Shown here in pieces: positions 1 through 36,476 of a DNA stretch of 64,000 bases. Each line of letters begins with the position of its first letter. The first letter of the stretch is position 1. A model generated the notes under the pieces. The model ran no database searches. It was not told where the DNA came from and was given only the letters and a program-made list of their open reading frames with translations. The DNA comes from Pseudomonas kermanshahensis (lineage in GTDB: Bacteria; Pseudomonadota; Gammaproteobacteria; Pseudomonadales; Pseudomonadaceae): contig NZ_JABWRY020000001.1 in the NCBI RefSeq assembly GCF_014269205.2, positions 4,574,001 to 4,638,000 on the forward strand, given 5' to 3'. The translations under genes and the position numbers were made by a program.

Positions 1-1317
1 CTACTACTGGCCTGCCTGGCGGTGTTGGCGCTCGATCACGAGCTCGACAGCCGCGCGCGCAAGGACCTCGCGCGCAAGATGTTGCAGGTGGAACATAACC
101 TGCGTGTCGACCTGCGCAGCGAGGACCTGGGCAGCCGCGCCCACCCCCTGCTCGACCTGGTCATGGGGCACGACAACCTTAGCCTCAGCGTGCTCGCGCT
201 CGAGGGCCGCCACCCGCACCTGCTCAGCCTGGGCCCAGCCCTGGAGTCGAGCGTGGGCGCGCTGGCGACCGGCGCCCGGCTGACGTTTCACGTATGGCGC
301 GACAGCCGCGGTAACCAAATGCTCACTGCGACACGCCAGATGCGCTTGCGCGACGAGACACCAGTACGGGTGATGATGACGCTCGACCGCGCCGACGACA
401 ACGCCCTGCTCCAGGCCTACCTGCACTCGACCCTGATCGCCCTGCCCTTGCTGTTGATACTGATCGGCATCTGCGCCTGGAAACTGGTGCAACGCAGCCT
501 GAAACCCTTGCGCCATTTTCGCCGGGTGGCCGGCCAGGTTTCGGCCCAGGACCTCAGCCACCGCCTGCCCGACAGAGGTCTGCCACAAGAGCTGGGCGAG
601 CTGGCCAGGGCCATCAACGTGATGCTCGACCGGCTCGACCTAGGCGTGCAACAGTTGTCGCAGTTTTCCGACGACCTTGCCCATGAGCTACGCACGCCGC
701 TAAGCAACCTGATGGGCAAGGCCCAAGTCACCCTCAGCCGCGAGCGCGACAACGCCAACTACCGGGAAGTGCTGGAGGACAGCATCGAAGAGCTGACCCG
801 GCTCAACCGCATCATCAACGACATGCTGTTTCTCGCCCAGGTTAGCCAGCCTCAGGCGCAGGTGGCGCTCAAGCCCCTGGCGCTGGCCGATGAGGCTGCA
901 CAGGTGGTGGAGCTGTTTGCCATCAGCGCGGAGCTCAAGGACATTGAGCTTCACCTTCAAGGCTGGGGTACGGCCTTGGGTGATCGGCTGATGTTCCAGC
1001 GTGCGTTGTCGAACCTGTTGAGCAATGCCATTCGGCATGCGCCGGTAGGCACGCGCATCGACCTCGGTATCGAGCGCCACGCAAGCGATGTCAGGGTCTG
1101 GGTGGAAAATGAGGGCGTAGGGATTGGCGCAGAGCATCAGCCGCAGTTGTTCGAGCGTTTCTATCGCGTGGGCGCTGGGCGCTCTCGGCTTGAGGGGGGC
1201 ACCGGGTTGGGGCTGGCGATCGTGAAGTCGATCATGCAGTTGCATGGTGGAAAAGTCGAAGTAAGCAGCCGACCTGAAGGCCCGACATGCTTTACTTTGA
1301 TATTCAAATGCCCCTGA
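1..1317 (+). CDS. Heavy-metal-type sensor histidine kinase (5' end missing)
   Basis: Inner-membrane sensor kinase of the CusS/CopS/IrlS class, which phosphorylates an OmpR-type regulator in response to metal ions such as copper. The reading frame is open to the first base of the window, so the N-terminus (cytoplasmic tail and most of the first membrane segment) and the partner regulator lie to the left. Visible parts in order: a short periplasmic sensor region, a second membrane segment (about nt 415-480), a HAMP linker beginning KPLRHFRR, the phospho-acceptor box DLAHELRTPLSN, the N box NLLSNAIRHAP, and the G boxes ENEGVGI and GGTGLGLAI. Its stop lies only 4 nt from the convergent stop of rdrB. 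The metal cannot be told from sequence alone. Confidence 0.9.
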   Translation, partial: LLLACLAVLALDHELDSRARKDLARKMLQVEHNLRVDLRSEDLGSRAHPLLDLVMGHDNLSLSVLALEGRHPHLLSLGPALESSVGALATGARLTFHVWRDSRGNQMLTATRQMRLRDETPVRVMMTLDRADDNALLQAYLHSTLIALPLLLILIGICAWKLVQRSLKPLRHFRRVAGQVSAQDLSHRLPDRGLPQELGELARAINVMLDRLDLGVQQLSQFSDDLAHELRTPLSNLMGKAQVTLSRERDNANYREVLEDSIEELTRLNRIINDMLFLAQVSQPQAQVALKPLALADEAAQVVELFAISAELKDIELHLQGWGTALGDRLMFQRALSNLLSNAIRHAPVGTRIDLGIERHASDVRVWVENEGVGIGAEHQPQLFERFYRVGAGRSRLEGGTGLGLAIVKSIMQLHGGKVEVSSRPEGPTCFTLIFKCP

Positions 1318-1321
1318 GATA

Positions 1322-4078
1322 TCAGATTGAGGTAAACACCTGGTGGTGGTTTCGATGGAACTGATCGACACCAAATTGACGCAAGCGTTCAAGCCAATCC
1401 TCGGCAACTGTGCGTGAATAGCCCAAATCAATAGCAGCCTCGCGCATAAGCTCGAACTCAGTGCGAAGCGTAGTAGGCATGACTCCTGGGTCATCGGTAT
1501 TTATCAGCACGCGCATCGGTCCTCTGCGCAGCCCATAACGATTGAACTCGCCACCTGCGTGTAGCTCTCTATCATCGGGAGGACTCCAACGAAAGATCGG
1601 ATGCTCACCGTGGTGCTCAAGACGAGCAATGTATACGTTTGAGGTAGGGTTGGTTTCGATAATTAGGCCTTTACGGTCATAGTTGTCCAATAAATAGTCT
1701 TGAATGGCATGCATGAACTCTAGTTCTTCCAGAGTATCTATGTCACGCAACGGCATATCCTCCCCCCCGTCATGACACTCATGCAATCGGGGACCTTTAC
1801 CATCGCCCGCCACCTCGACAATTACCGTGCGCGGCGGCTTGGTCCGCCCCGCTCTAATCAGCATATGGCGTAGTAAATACAAGCCCACGGCCGATGCAAC
1901 ATTTTGGCCGCCAATCAGCGAATTTTTCCCTCGGGCCAAGTAGTCATAATCTGGCACCGCGATGGTCAGCTTGTGCTCAGGTGCCGCGAGAGGATGATTC
2001 TGCTCGAACTGGAAGTGGCAGTTTTGCCGTAGTTGCCAGGCTTGGAACAATAGACCAGGGCTAGGCCCTAACCGAGCACCTGCCAATAAGGCTACCTCCC
2101 CATCATCTGTTAATGGTGCCAGCAACTCCATGTCTTCAAGGTCGTTACACCAGCCAACCACTCTCGCAAAGCGAGCAATGCGGCGTTCCAATCTACTGAT
2201 GATACGGCTGGCCAACTCTACTCTACCGCCTAGTTCACAGGCGTAGTGCCACATCCACACGAGGTTATCTAAATGCTCATCAACCGTTAGAATCATATCG
2301 CCCTGGCGGATGCACCAGTCGCGCGGAGGGATTCCCAGAGCTAGCGCATGCCCCAATCGATCGCCGCTGCGCATCTGGCAAAAACGCACGGTTTCATCGA
2401 CATGGCGCAAGCCGGACAACGGGTGGGCATAATCCTCTCCAGCGTGGATACTCAGGTGAAAGCCCGGCGTGGCCATGTTACCCTCGCGATGGGCATGGAC
2501 ATGAGTGCGTATCCAGCGCAGCACAGGTGAGAACCATTCAATACGCAGGGCATTTTCATCACCCGCGACATCTAAGCCACGCAGCCAACGGCTGGGCTGG
2601 AAATGGAAATTGGGGTTATTCACGCCGCCTAAGAATGCCGAGTGATCGGTATGGTTTTCAGAATCGAGTGCACTTAATAAATCTTCGGCAATCTTCCAGC
2701 ATTTTTTTGCGTCGTGCTCGGGGGTCAATCGACGCCCTTGCTTATTTTTCCTTCTTCCAGCAGAACTACGTGAGAAATGCATGCAAAAGTGCCAACGCTC
2801 ATTGCTTTGAAGGTACTTTTCGTGCGCTGGCCCCATCTGGCGATAATCAGGAAATCCAAAGGCTCCCGTCTCGTCCGGTAGAGGAGACCCTTGAGCCGCT
2901 CCTATCGCAATGGCCATTTCCGAGAAACGCTCAGGCTTGATCATACTCGACGAAACTTTGAACTCCACTAGATCGCCAGGAGCAGAAAGCATTCGAGCGA
3001 TGTTCTCGGCGTTCCCACTATTTTTGGCGGTCGTAGCTAATGAAGCATGCGCATAGTCGTCGGCAAACCTAGTTAGCCCTTGGCCATCCATGATCAGCTG
3101 TTTACGAAGACTCATCAGTTCACTGAACAGGTAGAATATGGCCACACGGACAGTAAGCGGAGTTTCTTCATGGCGGTAGCTATACCATAGCCAGATGACC
3201 AACCAAGCCCAGCCTTCCGCATAACGTGGCGAGCCCGAGGGTTGAGGCCTCAACGCGTTGGCTACCTCTTTGAGCAACCATGGACCATCGATAGCCTGAT
3301 CGGAGCCTCTACTGTACTGAAAGTAGTGCCAATACAAATTCAAGGGCATTGGTGGTTCAAACGGTTCATCGCCACTGGCTATTTTCAATTTCTTGATAAT
3401 ACCCTTGTCGCGAGGTATATGCTGTCCCTGATCCCGCTCGATCAGTTGCGCTAAGATACGGCGCAAGCGTCTCAAGGTGTCCCGGTCGGAGCTTGATTCG
3501 CTGTCCACCGCGAACAGGCTGCTTATAAGTACAACACTATCAAACGCGATACCGCCTAGGTGCACATGACCCTCGGCGAACGGCTTATTGCTGATGCTGG
3601 CTGGAGCTTGGAACAGCCGCTGGCCATTAACGATACGGCGAAAGTCAGACGGCTTAAGATGCTCATATCTGGATAGCCAGCCAGCCATATGCCAGCCTGT
3701 GAGCAAGAGGGGATCCAGATCGGCCGCCAATCTTGCGTAGGCTTGAACTTGATCGTCGCGATAATGCAAATAGTCGCCGTTGCGCACCATCAACTTATCG
3801 AACAGCGCGTCCAACATCGGCAGTTTGGGCGACTCGAACATATCCTGCGGCACCAAGCCGCCGAAAGCGTGGTCTAGATCGGTGCGTCGGAAACGTCGCG
3901 AGTGATTAATGTCCAGTGACTTGGCCAGTCCCTCAAGACGCTGCGCGTGCCAATTATTGAAATCATCAGCGGGAGCGAACTTCACTTTCCCCCTAAGGAA
4001 ATCCAGTAACAGATCAATTTGAATGGGACTGGTGAACATCTCACTTGTGGCGAGCTCGAGGAGAGAGCGTTTAATCAT
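1322..4078 (-). CDS. rdrB: RADAR anti-phage protein RdrB, adenosine deaminase-fold subunit
   Basis: 918-residue protein with the adenosine deaminase active site spread over a very long chain. Seen: HVHLGG at 171-176 (zinc ligands H171, H173), HAGED at 545-549 (ligand H545, catalytic E548), RLGHAL at 574-579 (H577), PTSN at 811-814, and NTDDPG at 860-865 (ligand D862, D863). Ordinary adenosine deaminases are about 350 residues; this size, the ~170-residue N-terminal extension and the adjoining ATPase identify RdrB. Published RADAR work describes RdrB as a large oligomeric shell deaminating adenosine in RNA or adenine nucleotides after phage infection. The ATG overlaps the rdrA stop as ATGA, implying translational coupling. 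Every catalytic residue is intact, so it should be active. No third RADAR gene (SLATT or other membrane protein) is present. Confidence 0.93.
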   Translation of the reverse strand: MIKRSLLELATSEMFTSPIQIDLLLDFLRGKVKFAPADDFNNWHAQRLEGLAKSLDINHSRRFRRTDLDHAFGGLVPQDMFESPKLPMLDALFDKLMVRNGDYLHYRDDQVQAYARLAADLDPLLLTGWHMAGWLSRYEHLKPSDFRRIVNGQRLFQAPASISNKPFAEGHVHLGGIAFDSVVLISSLFAVDSESSSDRDTLRRLRRILAQLIERDQGQHIPRDKGIIKKLKIASGDEPFEPPMPLNLYWHYFQYSRGSDQAIDGPWLLKEVANALRPQPSGSPRYAEGWAWLVIWLWYSYRHEETPLTVRVAIFYLFSELMSLRKQLIMDGQGLTRFADDYAHASLATTAKNSGNAENIARMLSAPGDLVEFKVSSSMIKPERFSEMAIAIGAAQGSPLPDETGAFGFPDYRQMGPAHEKYLQSNERWHFCMHFSRSSAGRRKNKQGRRLTPEHDAKKCWKIAEDLLSALDSENHTDHSAFLGGVNNPNFHFQPSRWLRGLDVAGDENALRIEWFSPVLRWIRTHVHAHREGNMATPGFHLSIHAGEDYAHPLSGLRHVDETVRFCQMRSGDRLGHALALGIPPRDWCIRQGDMILTVDEHLDNLVWMWHYACELGGRVELASRIISRLERRIARFARVVGWCNDLEDMELLAPLTDDGEVALLAGARLGPSPGLLFQAWQLRQNCHFQFEQNHPLAAPEHKLTIAVPDYDYLARGKNSLIGGQNVASAVGLYLLRHMLIRAGRTKPPRTVIVEVAGDGKGPRLHECHDGGEDMPLRDIDTLEELEFMHAIQDYLLDNYDRKGLIIETNPTSNVYIARLEHHGEHPIFRWSPPDDRELHAGGEFNRYGLRRGPMRVLINTDDPGVMPTTLRTEFELMREAAIDLGYSRTVAEDWLERLRQFGVDQFHRNHHQVFTSI

Positions 4079-6738
4079 GACCTATACTTCTTGGTTTTCT
4101 TGAGCCTTTCAATAGCGGATGACACTTGCATTTCATAAACCGCAGGCACTTTAGGGAAACGTTCGCGAAACTCCTCACTGAAAAACTCTAGCTCATCATA
4201 GGTATCGAACTTTTCACGCAACCCTTGCTCTATGTTTTTTATATTAATACGATTACTTTCAATACCCAACTGTTGAGAAATCCAGTCTGAGACTTGCTGC
4301 CCGCTAGGTAATTCAGCCTTCCCCTCAGCTAACACTTCACTCGCTACAACAGCTAGCAATCCACGCAGTGGGTGATCACCTAAGAAATACGTAACAGCTT
4401 TCGTGACTTTACCGAAGCAAGCTACCGCTTTTGCTGAAGCAGACTCATTACTTAAAAAATCGCCCTCCTTGACGCCAAAAGTCGAGTTCGCCCTAGGATA
4501 AAACGGCAAAATATTTTGTGTATAAGTTTGCGTACTTTCAAAAAACTTAGGCGCACCGATATTTACCGTTGCAACGAGTGGTGGCAAACCAAACAATCGA
4601 CCTTTTTCGAAGCTGCCAAAAGCCGCCCACAAACTATTAAAAGCACTTTGCGAAATCTCGACCACATCAATCAAACCAAGTGAGTTTTTAGATGACGGAT
4701 TGAAAAAACCAGCTTGATTCAAAGTTTTATTGAACACGTTATATACAAGCCAAGGCGACAACCTAAACGTCTCTAAACCATGTCGCTTACGCCATTCTTT
4801 TATTTGCGACGAAAGTTCTTCAATCTCCACCTCATAATCACCGAGATTGAAAAGACCATCAAAAGATTCGAGATAGTCCTCTTCGCCCGAGACTTCAATA
4901 CGCACCTTAGTTGCAGCAACTGCTGCCGTAGAGTAAAAAGGGGCACGTGACAATAACCCAACAATCTCGTCAACTTCAACTTCTCGCAAAAGACTTGAAA
5001 TTACTAGCTCTATTATTCGCCCCACGCCCACCATGCGGCCACGAAGTGAGCTTGAATAGTAATTCCTATGCAGCATCAACGCTAGCACCAGGCCCTGTCG
5101 CGGACTACTTCCTCGCGCAGACCAACCAATACGCCCTAAACTCCCACCTACTTCCGGCACAGGATATGGCAAAATCGATTTACTCGGCAGACGTTTTATC
5201 CAATCTTCCGGGAGTTTCCCATTAAGCACTCGGTGCCAAGTTTCAAGATCAGCTTGGTTTTTAAATGAATTGTATTCTGCGGCCTCATGCATTCTCGGCT
5301 GAAACAGAGGGGTTTCAAAAACACTCTCCATACCCCCCAGCCTTTCAGCCCAGTCCTTTTTTGCGGTCAGAACCAAATACGCAGGCCCGCCATATGAATC
5401 ATAATAAAAGTGCCTCTGCAGTGCAGAGCACCATGCACTTTCATCTATACCAGGCATCAAGTTTAAAGTCGAATTACTATCCCCTTCTATACGCTCAAAC
5501 GCATTTAAGAACACTCTATAAGCTGGAAGATATTCTCGCTTATGATGAGTACGAATTTCAGCATAGCTCGCCGCAAACTGCTCAATCACATCGCGTGGTA
5601 TATTTGGCATCTGGTAGAAATGTGCTAGATCCCCACTCTCACGATAATCATAAAACCGTTCAGGCAGGGACGAAATCAACTCACGACAGCGATATACTAG
5701 CTGCGTCAGCGCTCGAATCGAGCCTAACGGAACTACTAACTTGCTATTTTCCAAACCATTAACCGGCCCGGATAAAAAAACGTTAATCCATTCACTAAAT
5801 GCTCTCAACTGAAGCTGCTGCCCCGAGCGCCCTCTATCCAACAGAAAAACTAATGGATCAGCAAGATAACTTGATACATCAGGCATTCTCAGACGATATT
5901 GGAGTGGCAAAACTTTACGTTGATATTCAGTTGCCAAATCGTAAGCATGCTCATAGGCATCGGCGCGACGATAATTGGAATCTTGCAAAATACGCCCATG
6001 GAAGTCTCGCCAGGTCAACTCATCATACAGACGACCATCTCCACTAATTACTGGCAGCACCTTGGGTGTTGTCAAATACCTTCGAACAATTTCAAGATTT
6101 TCAAACGCTTTACTCAACGAGGTATCAACATCATCAATAGTCAGCACTAGAAGATCTTTATCTATGATCTTAAGCGCAAGCTCGAAGAAATTGTGCACCT
6201 CTTCTACCAACTGCTGATTCCCCATGAAGGCTCGCAGTTTATCTAAGCCCTTTGTGTCATCCTGGGATTGCATTTTTTCGAGCGAGTGCCCTAGCCTTTG
6301 TAATTGAAGCGCGAGTTCTTTGCGATGTCTCTCACTCCCTTCTTGTGCAGCCTGAATATGTTTATCTGAAAGCACAGCAGCAACAATGACATTCAAGAAA
6401 AGATCATTATGATCTTCAAGCAAAGTGGGATCCACAGGCTTAAGTATGTGAACCCTGGCAATCCAATCCGCTTTACTAGACGCAAGATATGTTGGCAAGT
6501 TAACAAGTATTGAACTTTTTCCAGTCCCCCGCTTCCCATCGAGCAGTATGGCACTGTGAAGTCGGCATTGATCAAGTTTAAGATTTTGGGCACTAGCAAG
6601 TTTAGATCTATTTTGCGCTTCGCCGATGAACGTCAATAAATCTTCATAAACTTCCCGGGCAAGTAGGTTCTGTGCGTCGGCCTGGTAGGCACTTTCAGCT
6701 TGGTCAATTGGGATAAAACGGCGGCTTAGGTCGCCCAT
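4075..6738 (-). CDS. rdrA: RADAR anti-phage protein RdrA, P-loop ATPase
   Basis: 887-residue ATPase partner of RdrB. The Walker A motif GKRGTGKSS is at residues 68-76 and a Walker B motif LLVLTIDDVD at about 196-205, followed by a KVLPVISGD strand (226-234) that could carry sensor 1. The remaining ~650 residues have no motif I can name, as expected for the family. RdrA is known to form a ring that docks on the RdrB shell and is required for defence. The start is set by an AAAGGAAG ribosome site 7 nt before the ATG. Base composition is clearly richer in A/T than in flanking pdxJ or the kinase gene, which suggests horizontal acquisition. It lies 57 nt downstream of pdxJ on the same strand, so it may be read from pdxJ transcripts. 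Confidence 0.92.
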   Translation of the reverse strand: MGDLSRRFIPIDQAESAYQADAQNLLAREVYEDLLTFIGEAQNRSKLASAQNLKLDQCRLHSAILLDGKRGTGKSSILVNLPTYLASSKADWIARVHILKPVDPTLLEDHNDLFLNVIVAAVLSDKHIQAAQEGSERHRKELALQLQRLGHSLEKMQSQDDTKGLDKLRAFMGNQQLVEEVHNFFELALKIIDKDLLVLTIDDVDTSLSKAFENLEIVRRYLTTPKVLPVISGDGRLYDELTWRDFHGRILQDSNYRRADAYEHAYDLATEYQRKVLPLQYRLRMPDVSSYLADPLVFLLDRGRSGQQLQLRAFSEWINVFLSGPVNGLENSKLVVPLGSIRALTQLVYRCRELISSLPERFYDYRESGDLAHFYQMPNIPRDVIEQFAASYAEIRTHHKREYLPAYRVFLNAFERIEGDSNSTLNLMPGIDESAWCSALQRHFYYDSYGGPAYLVLTAKKDWAERLGGMESVFETPLFQPRMHEAAEYNSFKNQADLETWHRVLNGKLPEDWIKRLPSKSILPYPVPEVGGSLGRIGWSARGSSPRQGLVLALMLHRNYYSSSLRGRMVGVGRIIELVISSLLREVEVDEIVGLLSRAPFYSTAAVAATKVRIEVSGEEDYLESFDGLFNLGDYEVEIEELSSQIKEWRKRHGLETFRLSPWLVYNVFNKTLNQAGFFNPSSKNSLGLIDVVEISQSAFNSLWAAFGSFEKGRLFGLPPLVATVNIGAPKFFESTQTYTQNILPFYPRANSTFGVKEGDFLSNESASAKAVACFGKVTKAVTYFLGDHPLRGLLAVVASEVLAEGKAELPSGQQVSDWISQQLGIESNRINIKNIEQGLREKFDTYDELEFFSEEFRERFPKVPAVYEMQVSSAIERLKKTKKYRS

Positions 6739-6751
6739 TTCAATACTTCCT

Positions 6752-6784
6752 TTTAAAAATACCCTGAAGCTGACGACTTTCAGC
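6752..6784 (-). terminator. Weak hairpin between pdxJ and rdrA
   Basis: On the minus strand a 5-bp stem GCTGA/TCAGC with a 6-nt loop (6769-6784) is followed by a short T-run near 6752-6759. It could weakly end pdxJ transcription, but the stem is short and read-through into rdrA is plausible. No convincing -35/-10 pair for rdrA is visible in the 57-nt gap. Confidence 0.3.
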
Positions 6785-6795
6785 CTACGTTTCGA

Positions 6796-7536
6796 TCAGC
6801 GCGAAGCCGCCACGATCAACGCCTTCATCTCCGCCACCGCAGCCTTGAAGCCGACGAACAGCGCATGGGCCACCAACGCGTGGCCGATGTTCAGCTCATT
6901 GATGCCCTTGATCGCCGCGACTGCCTCGACGTTGTGGTAATGCAGGCCATGGCCGGCATTGACGATCAGCCCTTGGCCCACCCCGAACGCGACACCGTCC
7001 GCGATGCGCTTGAGCTCTTCAGCGACTTCAGTCGGCGTCTGTGCATCGGCGTAACGGCCGGTGTGCAGCTCGATGGCCGGCGCGCCTACGCGGCGCGAGG
7101 CTTCGATCTGCCGCTCGTCGGCGTCGATGAACAGCGACACTTCGGCACCGGTGCGGGCCAGGCGCTCGACTGCTGCCTTGATCCGTGCCTCTTGCCCCGC
7201 TACGTCCAGGCCGCCTTCGGTGGTCAGTTCCTGACGGGTCTCGGGCACCAGGCAGATGTGCGCCGGGCGGATCTTCTCGGCGAAGGCCATCATCTCTTCG
7301 GTGACGCCCATTTCGAAGTTCATGCGGGTCTGCAGCACATCCTTGAGCACCACCACATCGCGCTCCTGAATGTGCCGGCGGTCTTCGCGCAGGTGCACGG
7401 TGATGCCGTCGGCACCCGCTTCTTCGGCGTCCAGGGCAGCCTTGACCGGATCAGGGTAACGCGTGCCCCGGGCCTGGCGCAGCGTCGCCACGTGGTCGAT
7501 ATTTACGCCGAGAAGCATGCGGTTGCTGTGAGTCAC
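6796..7536 (-). CDS. pdxJ: Pyridoxine 5'-phosphate synthase PdxJ
   Basis: Condenses 1-deoxy-D-xylulose 5-phosphate with 3-amino-2-oxopropyl phosphate to pyridoxine 5'-phosphate, the last ring-forming step of the DXP-dependent vitamin B6 pathway, in the cytoplasm. 246 residues, the normal length. The TIM-barrel family signatures [15 protein letters not shown] near the N-terminus, the [11 protein letters not shown] segment and the GHGLHYHN segment are present. The start is a GTG at 7536, preceded by a CAGGAGAG ribosome site 6 nt upstream; an ATG six codons further in is possible but less well placed. It ends the era-recO-pdxJ gene string. Confidence 0.98.
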
Positions 7537-8412: not shown

Positions 8413-9321
8413 TTACAGGTCGCCGTAGCCCAGCGAGCGCAGGGCGCGCTCATCGTCGGACCAACCGCCTTTGACCTTGACCCAGAGGTTGAGCATGACC
8501 TTGGCGTCGAACAGCACTTCCATGTCCTTGCGCGCGTCGGAGCCAATGCGTTTGATACGCTCGCCCTTGTCACCGATGATGATCTTCTTCTGGCCATCGC
8601 GTTCGACCAGGATCAGCGCATGGATGTGCAACACGTGCCCTTGCTGCTTGAACTCTTCGATCTCTACGGTGATCTGGTACGGCAGCTCCGCACCCAACTG
8701 GCGCATGATCTTCTCGCGCACCAGTTCAGCGGCCAGGAAACGGCTGCTGCGGTCGGTGATCTGGTCTTCCGGGAAGAAGTGCTCGTTCTCCGGCAGGTGC
8801 TTGGCGATCAGGCCTTCCAGCGCTTCGAGGTTATGCCCCTGTTGCGCGGAGATCGGTACCACTTCCGCGTTCGGCAGTTGCTCCTGCAGCCATTGCAGGT
8901 GTGGAATCAAATCGGCTTTTTCTTCCAGGCGGTCGGTCTTGTTGACCGCCAGGATGACCGGGCCGCTGACGTACTGGACGCGCTCGAGCACCAACTGGTC
9001 CTCGTCGGTCCAGCGGGTACGGTCAACCACGAAGATCACCACGTCGACGTCTTTCAGGGCGGCCGAAGCGTTACGGTTCATGTAACGGTTCAGGGCCTTG
9101 TCGTTGGCCTTGTGCATACCCGGCGTGTCGACGTAGATCGCCTGCACATCACCCTCGGTCTTGATGCCGAGCATGTTGTGGCGGGTGGTCTGCGGCTTGC
9201 GCGAGGTGATCGCCAGCTTCTGCCCGAGGATGTGGTTGAGCAAGGTCGACTTGCCCACGTTGGGGCGGCCGACAATGGCCACGTAGCCGCAGCGAGTCGG
9301 GTTGTTATCAGTCATTGCCAT
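8413..9321 (-). CDS. era: GTPase Era
   Basis: Essential GTPase that binds the 3' end of 16S rRNA and assists 30S subunit maturation. 302 residues: N-terminal GTPase domain with G1 GRPNVGKST (about 18-26), G3 DTPGMH (about 65-70) and G4 NKTD, then a C-terminal KH RNA-binding domain containing the [13 protein letters not shown] loop. The start ATG at 9321 overlaps the end of rnc by 14 nt; a second ATG two codons later is an alternative. The rnc-era coupling is conserved across proteobacteria. Confidence 0.98.
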
Positions 9322-9997
9322 TCTCCACGCCCAGGGCGATCAATGCAGCCGCAGCGGCGACTTGCTCAGCGATACGCCGGCTCACACCCTGACCACGGCT
9401 CTTGTTGTTCAGCAGCACCACTTCGCATTCGACGAAGAAGGTACGGCAGTGCGGTTCGCCCTGGATATCCACCACCTCGTAGCGCGGCAGCTCACAGCTG
9501 CGCGACTGCAAGAACTCTTGCAGGCGGGTCTTGGGGTCCTTGTTGGTATCGACCAGGGTCAGGCTTTCGAATTCATCGGCCAGCCAGGCCAGGATACGCT
9601 CCCGGGCGGTCTGCATGTCCGCGTCCAGGTAGATGGCGCCAATCAGCGCCTCCAGGGCATCGGCCAGGATCGATTCGCGGCGGAAACCGCCGCTTTTCAG
9701 CTCCCCCGAACCCAGGCGCAGGTACTCGCCCAGATCAAAGCCTCGCGCCAGGCGGGCCAGGGTCTCACCCTTGACCAGGCGCGCACGCAAGCGCGACAAC
9801 TGGCCTTCACGGGCCTGCGGGAAGCGCTCGAACAGCGCCTCGCCGGCCACGAAGTTGAGAATGGCGTCGCCCAGAAACTCCAGGCGTTCGTTATTGCGCC
9901 CGGCGTAGCTGCGATGGGTCAGGGCCAGAAGCATCTGGTCCTGGTTCTTGAAGGTGTAACCGAGCTTTCGCTCCAGTGCGGCGAGGGAAGCACTCAT
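9308..9997 (-). CDS. rnc: Ribonuclease III
   Basis: Double-strand-specific endoribonuclease that processes rRNA precursors and some mRNAs. 229 residues: the RNase III signature [12 protein letters not shown] near residue 36-47 holds the acidic catalytic residues, a second acidic site follows ([13 protein letters not shown]), and a double-stranded RNA-binding domain forms the C-terminus ([11 protein letters not shown] onward). The ATG at 9997 has only a weak ribosome site, and the upstream frame ends in ATGA overlapping this start, suggesting coupling to a lost or reduced upstream reading frame. Confidence 0.98.
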
Positions 9998-36402: not shown

Positions 36403-36476
36403 GCGGGTATAGTTTAGTGGCAAAACGAAAGCTTCCCAAGCTTTAGTTGAGGGTTCGATTCCCTCTACCCGCTCCA
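36403..36476 (+). tRNA. glyT: tRNA-Gly (anticodon CCC)
   Basis: 74-nt cloverleaf with acceptor stem GCGGGTA/TACCCGC, anticodon stem AAAGC/GCTTT around loop TTCCCAA (anticodon CCC at 36435-36437), T loop GGTTCGATTCC and encoded CCA. Reads GGG codons. No integrase or attachment-site duplication was seen next to it. The symbol is a guess from the isoacceptor. Confidence 0.97.

What the first reader, a model, noticed from the sequence alone, without database searches (positions are those of the whole stretch)
1322..6738. Intact RADAR anti-phage cassette (rdrA-rdrB)
The two minus-strand genes form a P-loop ATPase with Walker A GKRGTGKSS (68-76) and Walker B (196-205), and a 918-residue deaminase-fold protein holding every adenosine deaminase ligand and catalytic residue (H171, H173, H545, E548, H577, D862, D863). 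They overlap by ATGA. RADAR is a described defence system; the interest is a complete copy in a P. putida-group chromosome, as a minimal two-gene form without the optional third membrane gene. The residues are seen; the system's identity follows from known RdrA/RdrB architecture; activity is inferred.
Basis: partly seen in the sequence, partly recalled or inferred. Interest (0 to 1): 0.85.

Follow-up and report, generated by a model that had tools for sequence, protein, structure and literature searches.

The report
Ordinary two-gene RADAR anti-phage cassette
This is an intact copy of RADAR, a known bacterial anti-phage system that spoils the cell's ATP during infection, sitting neatly between two ordinary chromosomal genes; it is a sound find but not a new kind of thing.

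Summary
Observation and name both hold. Window 4075-6738(-) is an 887-aa RdrA and 1322-4078(-) a 918-aa RdrB, overlapping by 4 nt. Both pass the NCBIfam RADAR cut-offs and match PADLOC models; predicted folds match solved E. coli RdrA and RdrB best; every named residue is present. It is divergent (17% identity to solved RdrB), but RADAR is already annotated in several Pseudomonas (nearest named RdrA 78%), and two-gene forms are common. The rdrA/rdrB GC difference is general (29 of 29 other pairs).

In 48 of 52 comparable genomes the convergent kinase and pdxJ genes lie 15-190 nt apart, with a strong, often REP-like hairpin in the spacers read. Here the hairpin is gone, with only 4 and 57 nt beside the cassette. 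Expression by read-through from pdxJ is possible but untested.

In passing: two related RADAR loci are followed by a HAM1-SIR2 pair like KomB-KomC of the dITP-sensing Kongming system. That deserves its own look. Verdict: ordinary new member, low interest.

The parts
4075..6738 (-). rdrA, 887 aa; N-terminal AAA+ ATPase (Walker A 68-76, Walker B D202/D203, sensor-1-like D234), helical C-terminal part
1322..4078 (-). rdrB, 918 aa; adenosine deaminase-fold enzyme with H171, H173, H545, E548, H577, D862, D863
4075..4078 (-). 4-nt overlap of rdrA stop and rdrB start (ATGA)
   Evidence: coordinates
6739..6795 (-). 57-nt leader between pdxJ stop and rdrA start; AT-rich, weak stem-loop (-11 kcal/mol, z -1.7), no consensus promoter or terminator called
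1318..1321 (.). 4 nt between the stop codons of the kinase gene (+) and rdrB (-); no terminator called
22..1317 (+). left neighbour: sensor histidine kinase, convergent with rdrB (frame runs off the window's left end)
   Evidence: Pfam HATPase_c, HisKA, HAMP
6796..7536 (-). right neighbour: pdxJ, same strand and upstream of rdrA
   Evidence: Pfam PdxJ 1.4e-100

Best explanation
A complete, probably functional RADAR cassette. By homology, RdrA is a ring-forming AAA+ ATPase that docks on a shell of RdrB deaminases. On phage infection the assembly converts ATP and dATP to ITP and dITP, poisoning nucleotide pools and stopping phage replication. Gene content, motifs and folds are shown here. Assembly, substrate and defence are inferred from the E. 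coli system. The cassette takes the place of the short hairpin spacer between a sensor kinase gene and pdxJ; how it came is unknown.
Against: No activity data. Sequence similarity to any structurally characterised RADAR is low (17% for RdrB; 14-15% for RdrA against 8fnt and 8fnw). Catalytic loops of the RdrB model have pLDDT under 50. Pfam A_deaminase stays below its gathering score for RdrB (23.7 vs 27), and AAA_16 for RdrA (22.4 vs 32.6). No consensus promoter is called within the 57-nt leader, so expression is unproven.
Confidence: 0.93

Rival explanations
1. The cassette is RADAR but is silent or decaying here: it landed without a promoter of its own and is not expressed enough to defend.
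For: No minus-strand sigma-70-like site is called in the 57-nt leader, and the weak stem-loop there could even impede read-through. GC content (44.4% and 52.7% against 62.2% for the window) suggests DNA acquired from elsewhere.
Against: Both frames are intact over about 900 codons each and keep the catalytic residues that are invariant in the 29 other RdrB and 38 other RdrA proteins aligned. A ribosome-binding-like AGGAAG lies before rdrA (my reading of the sequence).
Confidence: 0.15
2. RdrB of this branch acts on another substrate (for example RNA, dAMP or free adenosine) or the pair does something other than phage defence.
For: Divergence from characterised RdrB is large. RADAR was first proposed to edit RNA (described in PMC9994260, section 6). 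The adenosine deaminase arm of Kongming, KomA, starts from dAMP (PMC12948488, passage).
Against: Zinc ligands and catalytic residues are conserved, and E. coli RdrB with the same set makes ITP (PMC9994260: abstract, passages, discussion). Profile scores are equivalog level.
Confidence: 0.06
3. Chimeric cassette: rdrA and rdrB of different origin, because their GC contents differ by 8 points.
For: GC 44.4% (rdrA) and 52.7% (rdrB).
Against: rdrA is lower in GC than rdrB in 29 of 29 other pairs (third-position GC in 26 of 29), and RdrA and RdrB identities track each other (r=0.91, 39 pairs).
Confidence: 0.03

Closest known systems
RADAR of Escherichia coli (PDB 8FNT/8FNV/8FNW; 8HR7-8HRC)
   Same: Two tandem genes; AAA+ RdrA with Walker A/B; RdrB with the same histidines and glutamate and the same overall fold
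   Different: RdrB is 918 aa against 799 and 17% identical in structural alignment; RdrA is 887 aa against 947
RADAR proteins annotated by NCBI in Pseudomonas (P. mosselii RdrA; P. wadenswilerensis RdrA and RdrB)
   Same: Full-length, same families: 78% (P. mosselii RdrA), 57% and 58% (P. wadenswilerensis RdrA and RdrB) identity
   Different: Their genome positions could not be read here
NCBIfam NF041743 (RdrA) and NF041744 (RdrB); PADLOC PDLC02216 and PDLC02219
   Same: NCBIfam scores above the curated cut-offs; nearly full-length PADLOC matches
   Different: Nothing notable
CRISPR-associated adenosine deaminase Cad1 (CARF-ADA; 9C67, 8Z3K)
   Same: Deaminase fold and an ATP-to-ITP defence logic (PMC11645235, title and start of abstract in the listing only)

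Membership tests
RADAR | rdrA and rdrB encoded in tandem | tested here: met
   4-nt overlap, same strand
RADAR | RdrA profile match above curated cut-off | tested here: met
   NF041743 723.9 bits vs 600
RADAR | RdrB profile match above curated cut-off | tested here: met
   NF041744 878.5 bits vs 800
[quoted passage not shown]
   reference residues from PMC9994260 (passage)
RADAR | RdrB zinc-binding histidine tetrad and catalytic glutamate | tested here: met
   H171, H173, H545, H577, E548 present and invariant in A1
RADAR | RdrB fold (deaminase barrel with RdrB-type insertions) | tested here: met
RADAR | RdrA two-part fold (AAA+ plus helical C-terminal lobe) | tested here: met
RADAR | RdrA heptamer docking on RdrB dodecamer | not testable with these tools
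   needs EM or native mass measurement
RADAR | ATP/dATP to ITP/dITP conversion on infection and phage defence | not testable with these tools
   bench experiment needed
RADAR with a third membrane gene | membrane or SLATT gene directly after rdrB | tested here: not met
   only 4 nt between the rdrB stop and the kinase stop; the rest of the genome was not searched for such a gene
RADAR with a Kongming-type HAM1-SIR2 pair | HAM1-like and SIR2-like genes after rdrB | tested here: not met
   no match in the window; none in the own genome (no positive control in those two calls)

The most novel reading that the evidence does not exclude
The cassette replaced, not merely joined, the hairpin spacer that normally lies between the kinase and pdxJ genes. 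RADAR here would then be the promoter-less tail of the operon ending in pdxJ, expressed constitutively by read-through, with its rdrB end running head-on into the kinase transcript: a defence system wired into housekeeping expression, with no mobile element left beside it.
Probability: 0.2. Interest if true: 0.35.

Novelty: new member of a known kind. Interest (0 to 1): 0.2.

Why it matters
It adds a clean, divergent RADAR, useful as a test of how far the RADAR mechanism holds in a branch whose nearest solved relatives are under 20% identical. The site offers a natural comparison: the same convergent gene pair with a short spacer in 48 of 52 genomes and with a defence cassette here. The relatives brought up a larger question: two RADAR loci carry a HAM1-SIR2 pair of the kind that reads dITP in Kongming, which would make RADAR's product a signal as well as a poison.

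Tried and rejected
Mosaic origin of rdrA and rdrB from their GC difference: rejected, because the same direction of difference holds in 29 of 29 other pairs and identities co-vary.

Mobile-element carriage: no transposase or integrase was recognised by eye among the ORFs at the cassette and no tRNA lies near it (the only one is at 36403). No repeat pair of 14 nt or more brackets it (seed 10). No phage record encodes a relative of RdrB, and 0 of 7 plasmid records with a match cover 80% of it. The carrier is unknown, not excluded.

A broad hotspot of defence systems at this site: not supported. Of 52 genomes only 4, the window's own included, have more than 190 nt at the junction. Of the three others, G364 and G308 hold IS110-family transposase frames, and the 397-nt spacer of G189 carries the REP-like core by my pattern.

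A scan of genome contigs with the single RdrB found nothing; the alignment A1 found 35 loci. A draw of 398 genomes of the family added one RdrA locus (G603) at E up to 1e-60; its stretch L119 was used only. Which branch the Citrobacter rodentium RADAR belongs to could not be settled, as I had no sequence of it. A paper search combining RADAR, defence hotspot, Pseudomonas putida and defense systems listed 9 papers with at least 3 of the terms; none was opened, and no title names this locus. A search for RADAR with Csx27 listed one review, not opened. Searches for RADAR with Kongming or HAM1 and with ITP pyrophosphatase showed no title that joins them; open-licence papers only, 10 listed of 58 and of 37.

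Full report
Observation. A script confirmed each named residue: H171, H173, H545, E548, H577, D862, D863, Walker A GKRGTGKSS at 68-76, and LLVLTIDDVD at 196-205. All seven RdrB residues are invariant in the 30 RdrB sequences aligned, own included. RdrA G71, G73, K74, D202 and D203 are invariant in 39, own included. Two intact frames of this length with such conservation are not chance.

Identity. PADLOC gives RdrB 2.2e-286 and RdrA 1.5e-254, both nearly full length. NCBIfam equivalog models give 878.5 bits against a cut-off of 800 and 723.9 against 600. Pfam sees only a sub-threshold A_deaminase in RdrB and a sub-threshold AAA_16 in RdrA. By sequence, the PDB hits at E under 1e-10 are RADAR entries. 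Counting along those alignments, H545/E548/H577 and K74, D202/D203, D234 fall on the E. coli residues that PMC9994260 names as active-site and ATPase residues (passages).

Mechanism, inferred. In E. coli RADAR, RdrA heptamers dock on an RdrB dodecamer, and RdrB turns ATP and dATP into ITP and dITP during infection (PMC9994260; abstract, passages and sections 6, 10, 11, 14 read). The residues required for both enzymes are kept here, so I expect the same chemistry. What triggers it is unknown even for E. coli (section 14).

How common. In a sample of 398 Pseudomonas genomes, 10 (own included) match RdrB at E up to 1e-3. Three of the nine others match over most of the length; six match only parts of the second half. 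In a sample of 398 genomes of the family, 2 (own included) match RdrA at E up to 1e-60. The protein database holds an 85% RdrB relative (unnamed), a 78% RdrA relative from P. mosselii, and RADAR annotations in P. wadenswilerensis, P. urmiensis and P. asiatica. PMC9994260 reports RADAR in 270 of about 38,000 genomes (passage). So the system is rare, but this is not a first in the group.

Two genes or three. One search gave 35 loci; 34 have at least 300 nt after rdrB. A simple hydropathy scan finds a frame of 100 aa or more with a membrane segment, starting -30 to +200 nt from the rdrB stop, in 13 of 34; one of these (L046) lacks an rdrA. Three more (L027, L035, L036) show no membrane segment by that scan but match SLATT_2. 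In all, 8 of 15 downstream proteins scanned match a SLATT family above its cut-off (L024, L025, L027, L028 of 10; L022, L032, L035, L036 of 5). That leaves 18 of 34 without such a gene. The window has room for none.

Composition and co-inheritance. GC is 44.4% for rdrA and 52.7% for rdrB, against 62.2% for the window. The same order holds in 29 of 29 other pairs (the 6 of 35 loci without exactly one frame of each were dropped); third-position GC follows it in 26 of 29. It is a property of the system. RdrA and RdrB identities correlate at r=0.91 over 39 pairs: the window, those 29, five from unnamed Pseudomonas genomes, and four database pairs taken as pairs because they share a contig length.

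Insertion site. Of 398 Pseudomonas genomes, 53 have the kinase at E up to 1e-160 and all 53 have pdxJ. In 52 the two are convergent on one contig; G174, with them on different contigs, was dropped. The distance between match ends (not stop codons) is 15-190 nt in 48, 409 in G189, 1344 in G364, 1383 in G308 and 5484 here. I read the spacer of 36 of the 51 other genomes: 27 of 36 carry a REP-like core by my pattern, and 32 of the 33 under 200 nt fold better than -0.4 kcal/mol per nt. In G364 and G308 the spacer holds IS110-family transposase frames. IS elements that insert in REPs are known (PMC1525189, title and start of abstract in the listing only). In the window the pattern is absent on both sides, no terminator is called there, and the 57-nt leader has only a weak stem-loop (-11 kcal/mol, z -1.7). 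The cassette thus stands in place of the spacer. How it came is unknown.

Side finding, outside the window. In Rahnella inusitata (L013) and Enterovibrio sp. ZSDZ35 (L017) rdrB is followed on the same strand by a Ham1-family gene and a SIR2-family gene (Pfam 120.6 and 138.9 bits for Ham1p_like, 83.6 and 90.1 for SIR2_2). NCBIfam's XTP/dITP diphosphatase model matches them below its cut-off (143.3 and 169.7 against 203). The two pairs are 49% and 62% identical. They are in 2 of 41 RADAR loci searched, some with short flanks. On a Vibrio parahaemolyticus plasmid a SIR2 gene 75% identical to that of L017 sits in the order adenosine deaminase, non-canonical purine NTP pyrophosphatase, SIR2; in Pantoea sp. 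Nvir the last two stand without a deaminase. That order fits Kongming, where KomA helps make dITP and KomB binds it to activate the NADase KomC (PMC12948488, passage; PMC12774641, passage; that KomB is HAM1-like and KomC SIR2-like is recalled). My reading is that in L013 and L017 RADAR stands where KomA would. No such pair was found in the window or the own genome (without a positive control).

Verdict. A sound annotation of a known system: a divergent, intact, two-gene RADAR. The insertion geometry is the only unusual point in the window, and it is modest.

Noticed in passing
L013:5900-7254 (Rahnella inusitata) and L017:13082-14424 (Enterovibrio sp. ZSDZ35): RADAR is followed by a HAM1-like and a SIR2-like gene, the pair that in the dITP-sensing Kongming system would be KomB-KomC. 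RADAR may there feed a dITP-read NADase, in place of KomA. Found in 2 of 41 loci searched.
   Followed up: partly
window 1290-1312 and 5913-5935: The last bases of the kinase gene share 20 of 23 nt with a stretch inside rdrA, same orientation. 0 of 300 shuffles of the cassette and 0 of 143 other 91-nt segments of the window reach 20 of 23. The comparison was chosen after seeing the repeat; it may be chance or a trace of the insertion event.
   Followed up: partly
window 1300-1317: The kinase ends in FTLIFKCP, while most of the relatives read end like FTLVFPAE or FTLVFQAE: the final codons next to the cassette look altered.
   Followed up: partly
L107 (G364) 1350-2278 and L108 (G308) 1335-2276: The same kinase-pdxJ spacer carries IS110-family transposase frames in two other genomes; in G364 they lie in two separate frames.
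   Followed up: partly
L022, L024 and L110 (G097): Three Pseudomonas RADAR loci of another branch share a different chromosomal site with similar-looking neighbours, and L022 and L024 have a SLATT gene after rdrB.
   Followed up: no
L112 (G297) 8710-9801: A type IV restriction-like frame (PADLOC mREase_IV 1.7e-18) lies near this genome's RADAR pair.
   Followed up: no
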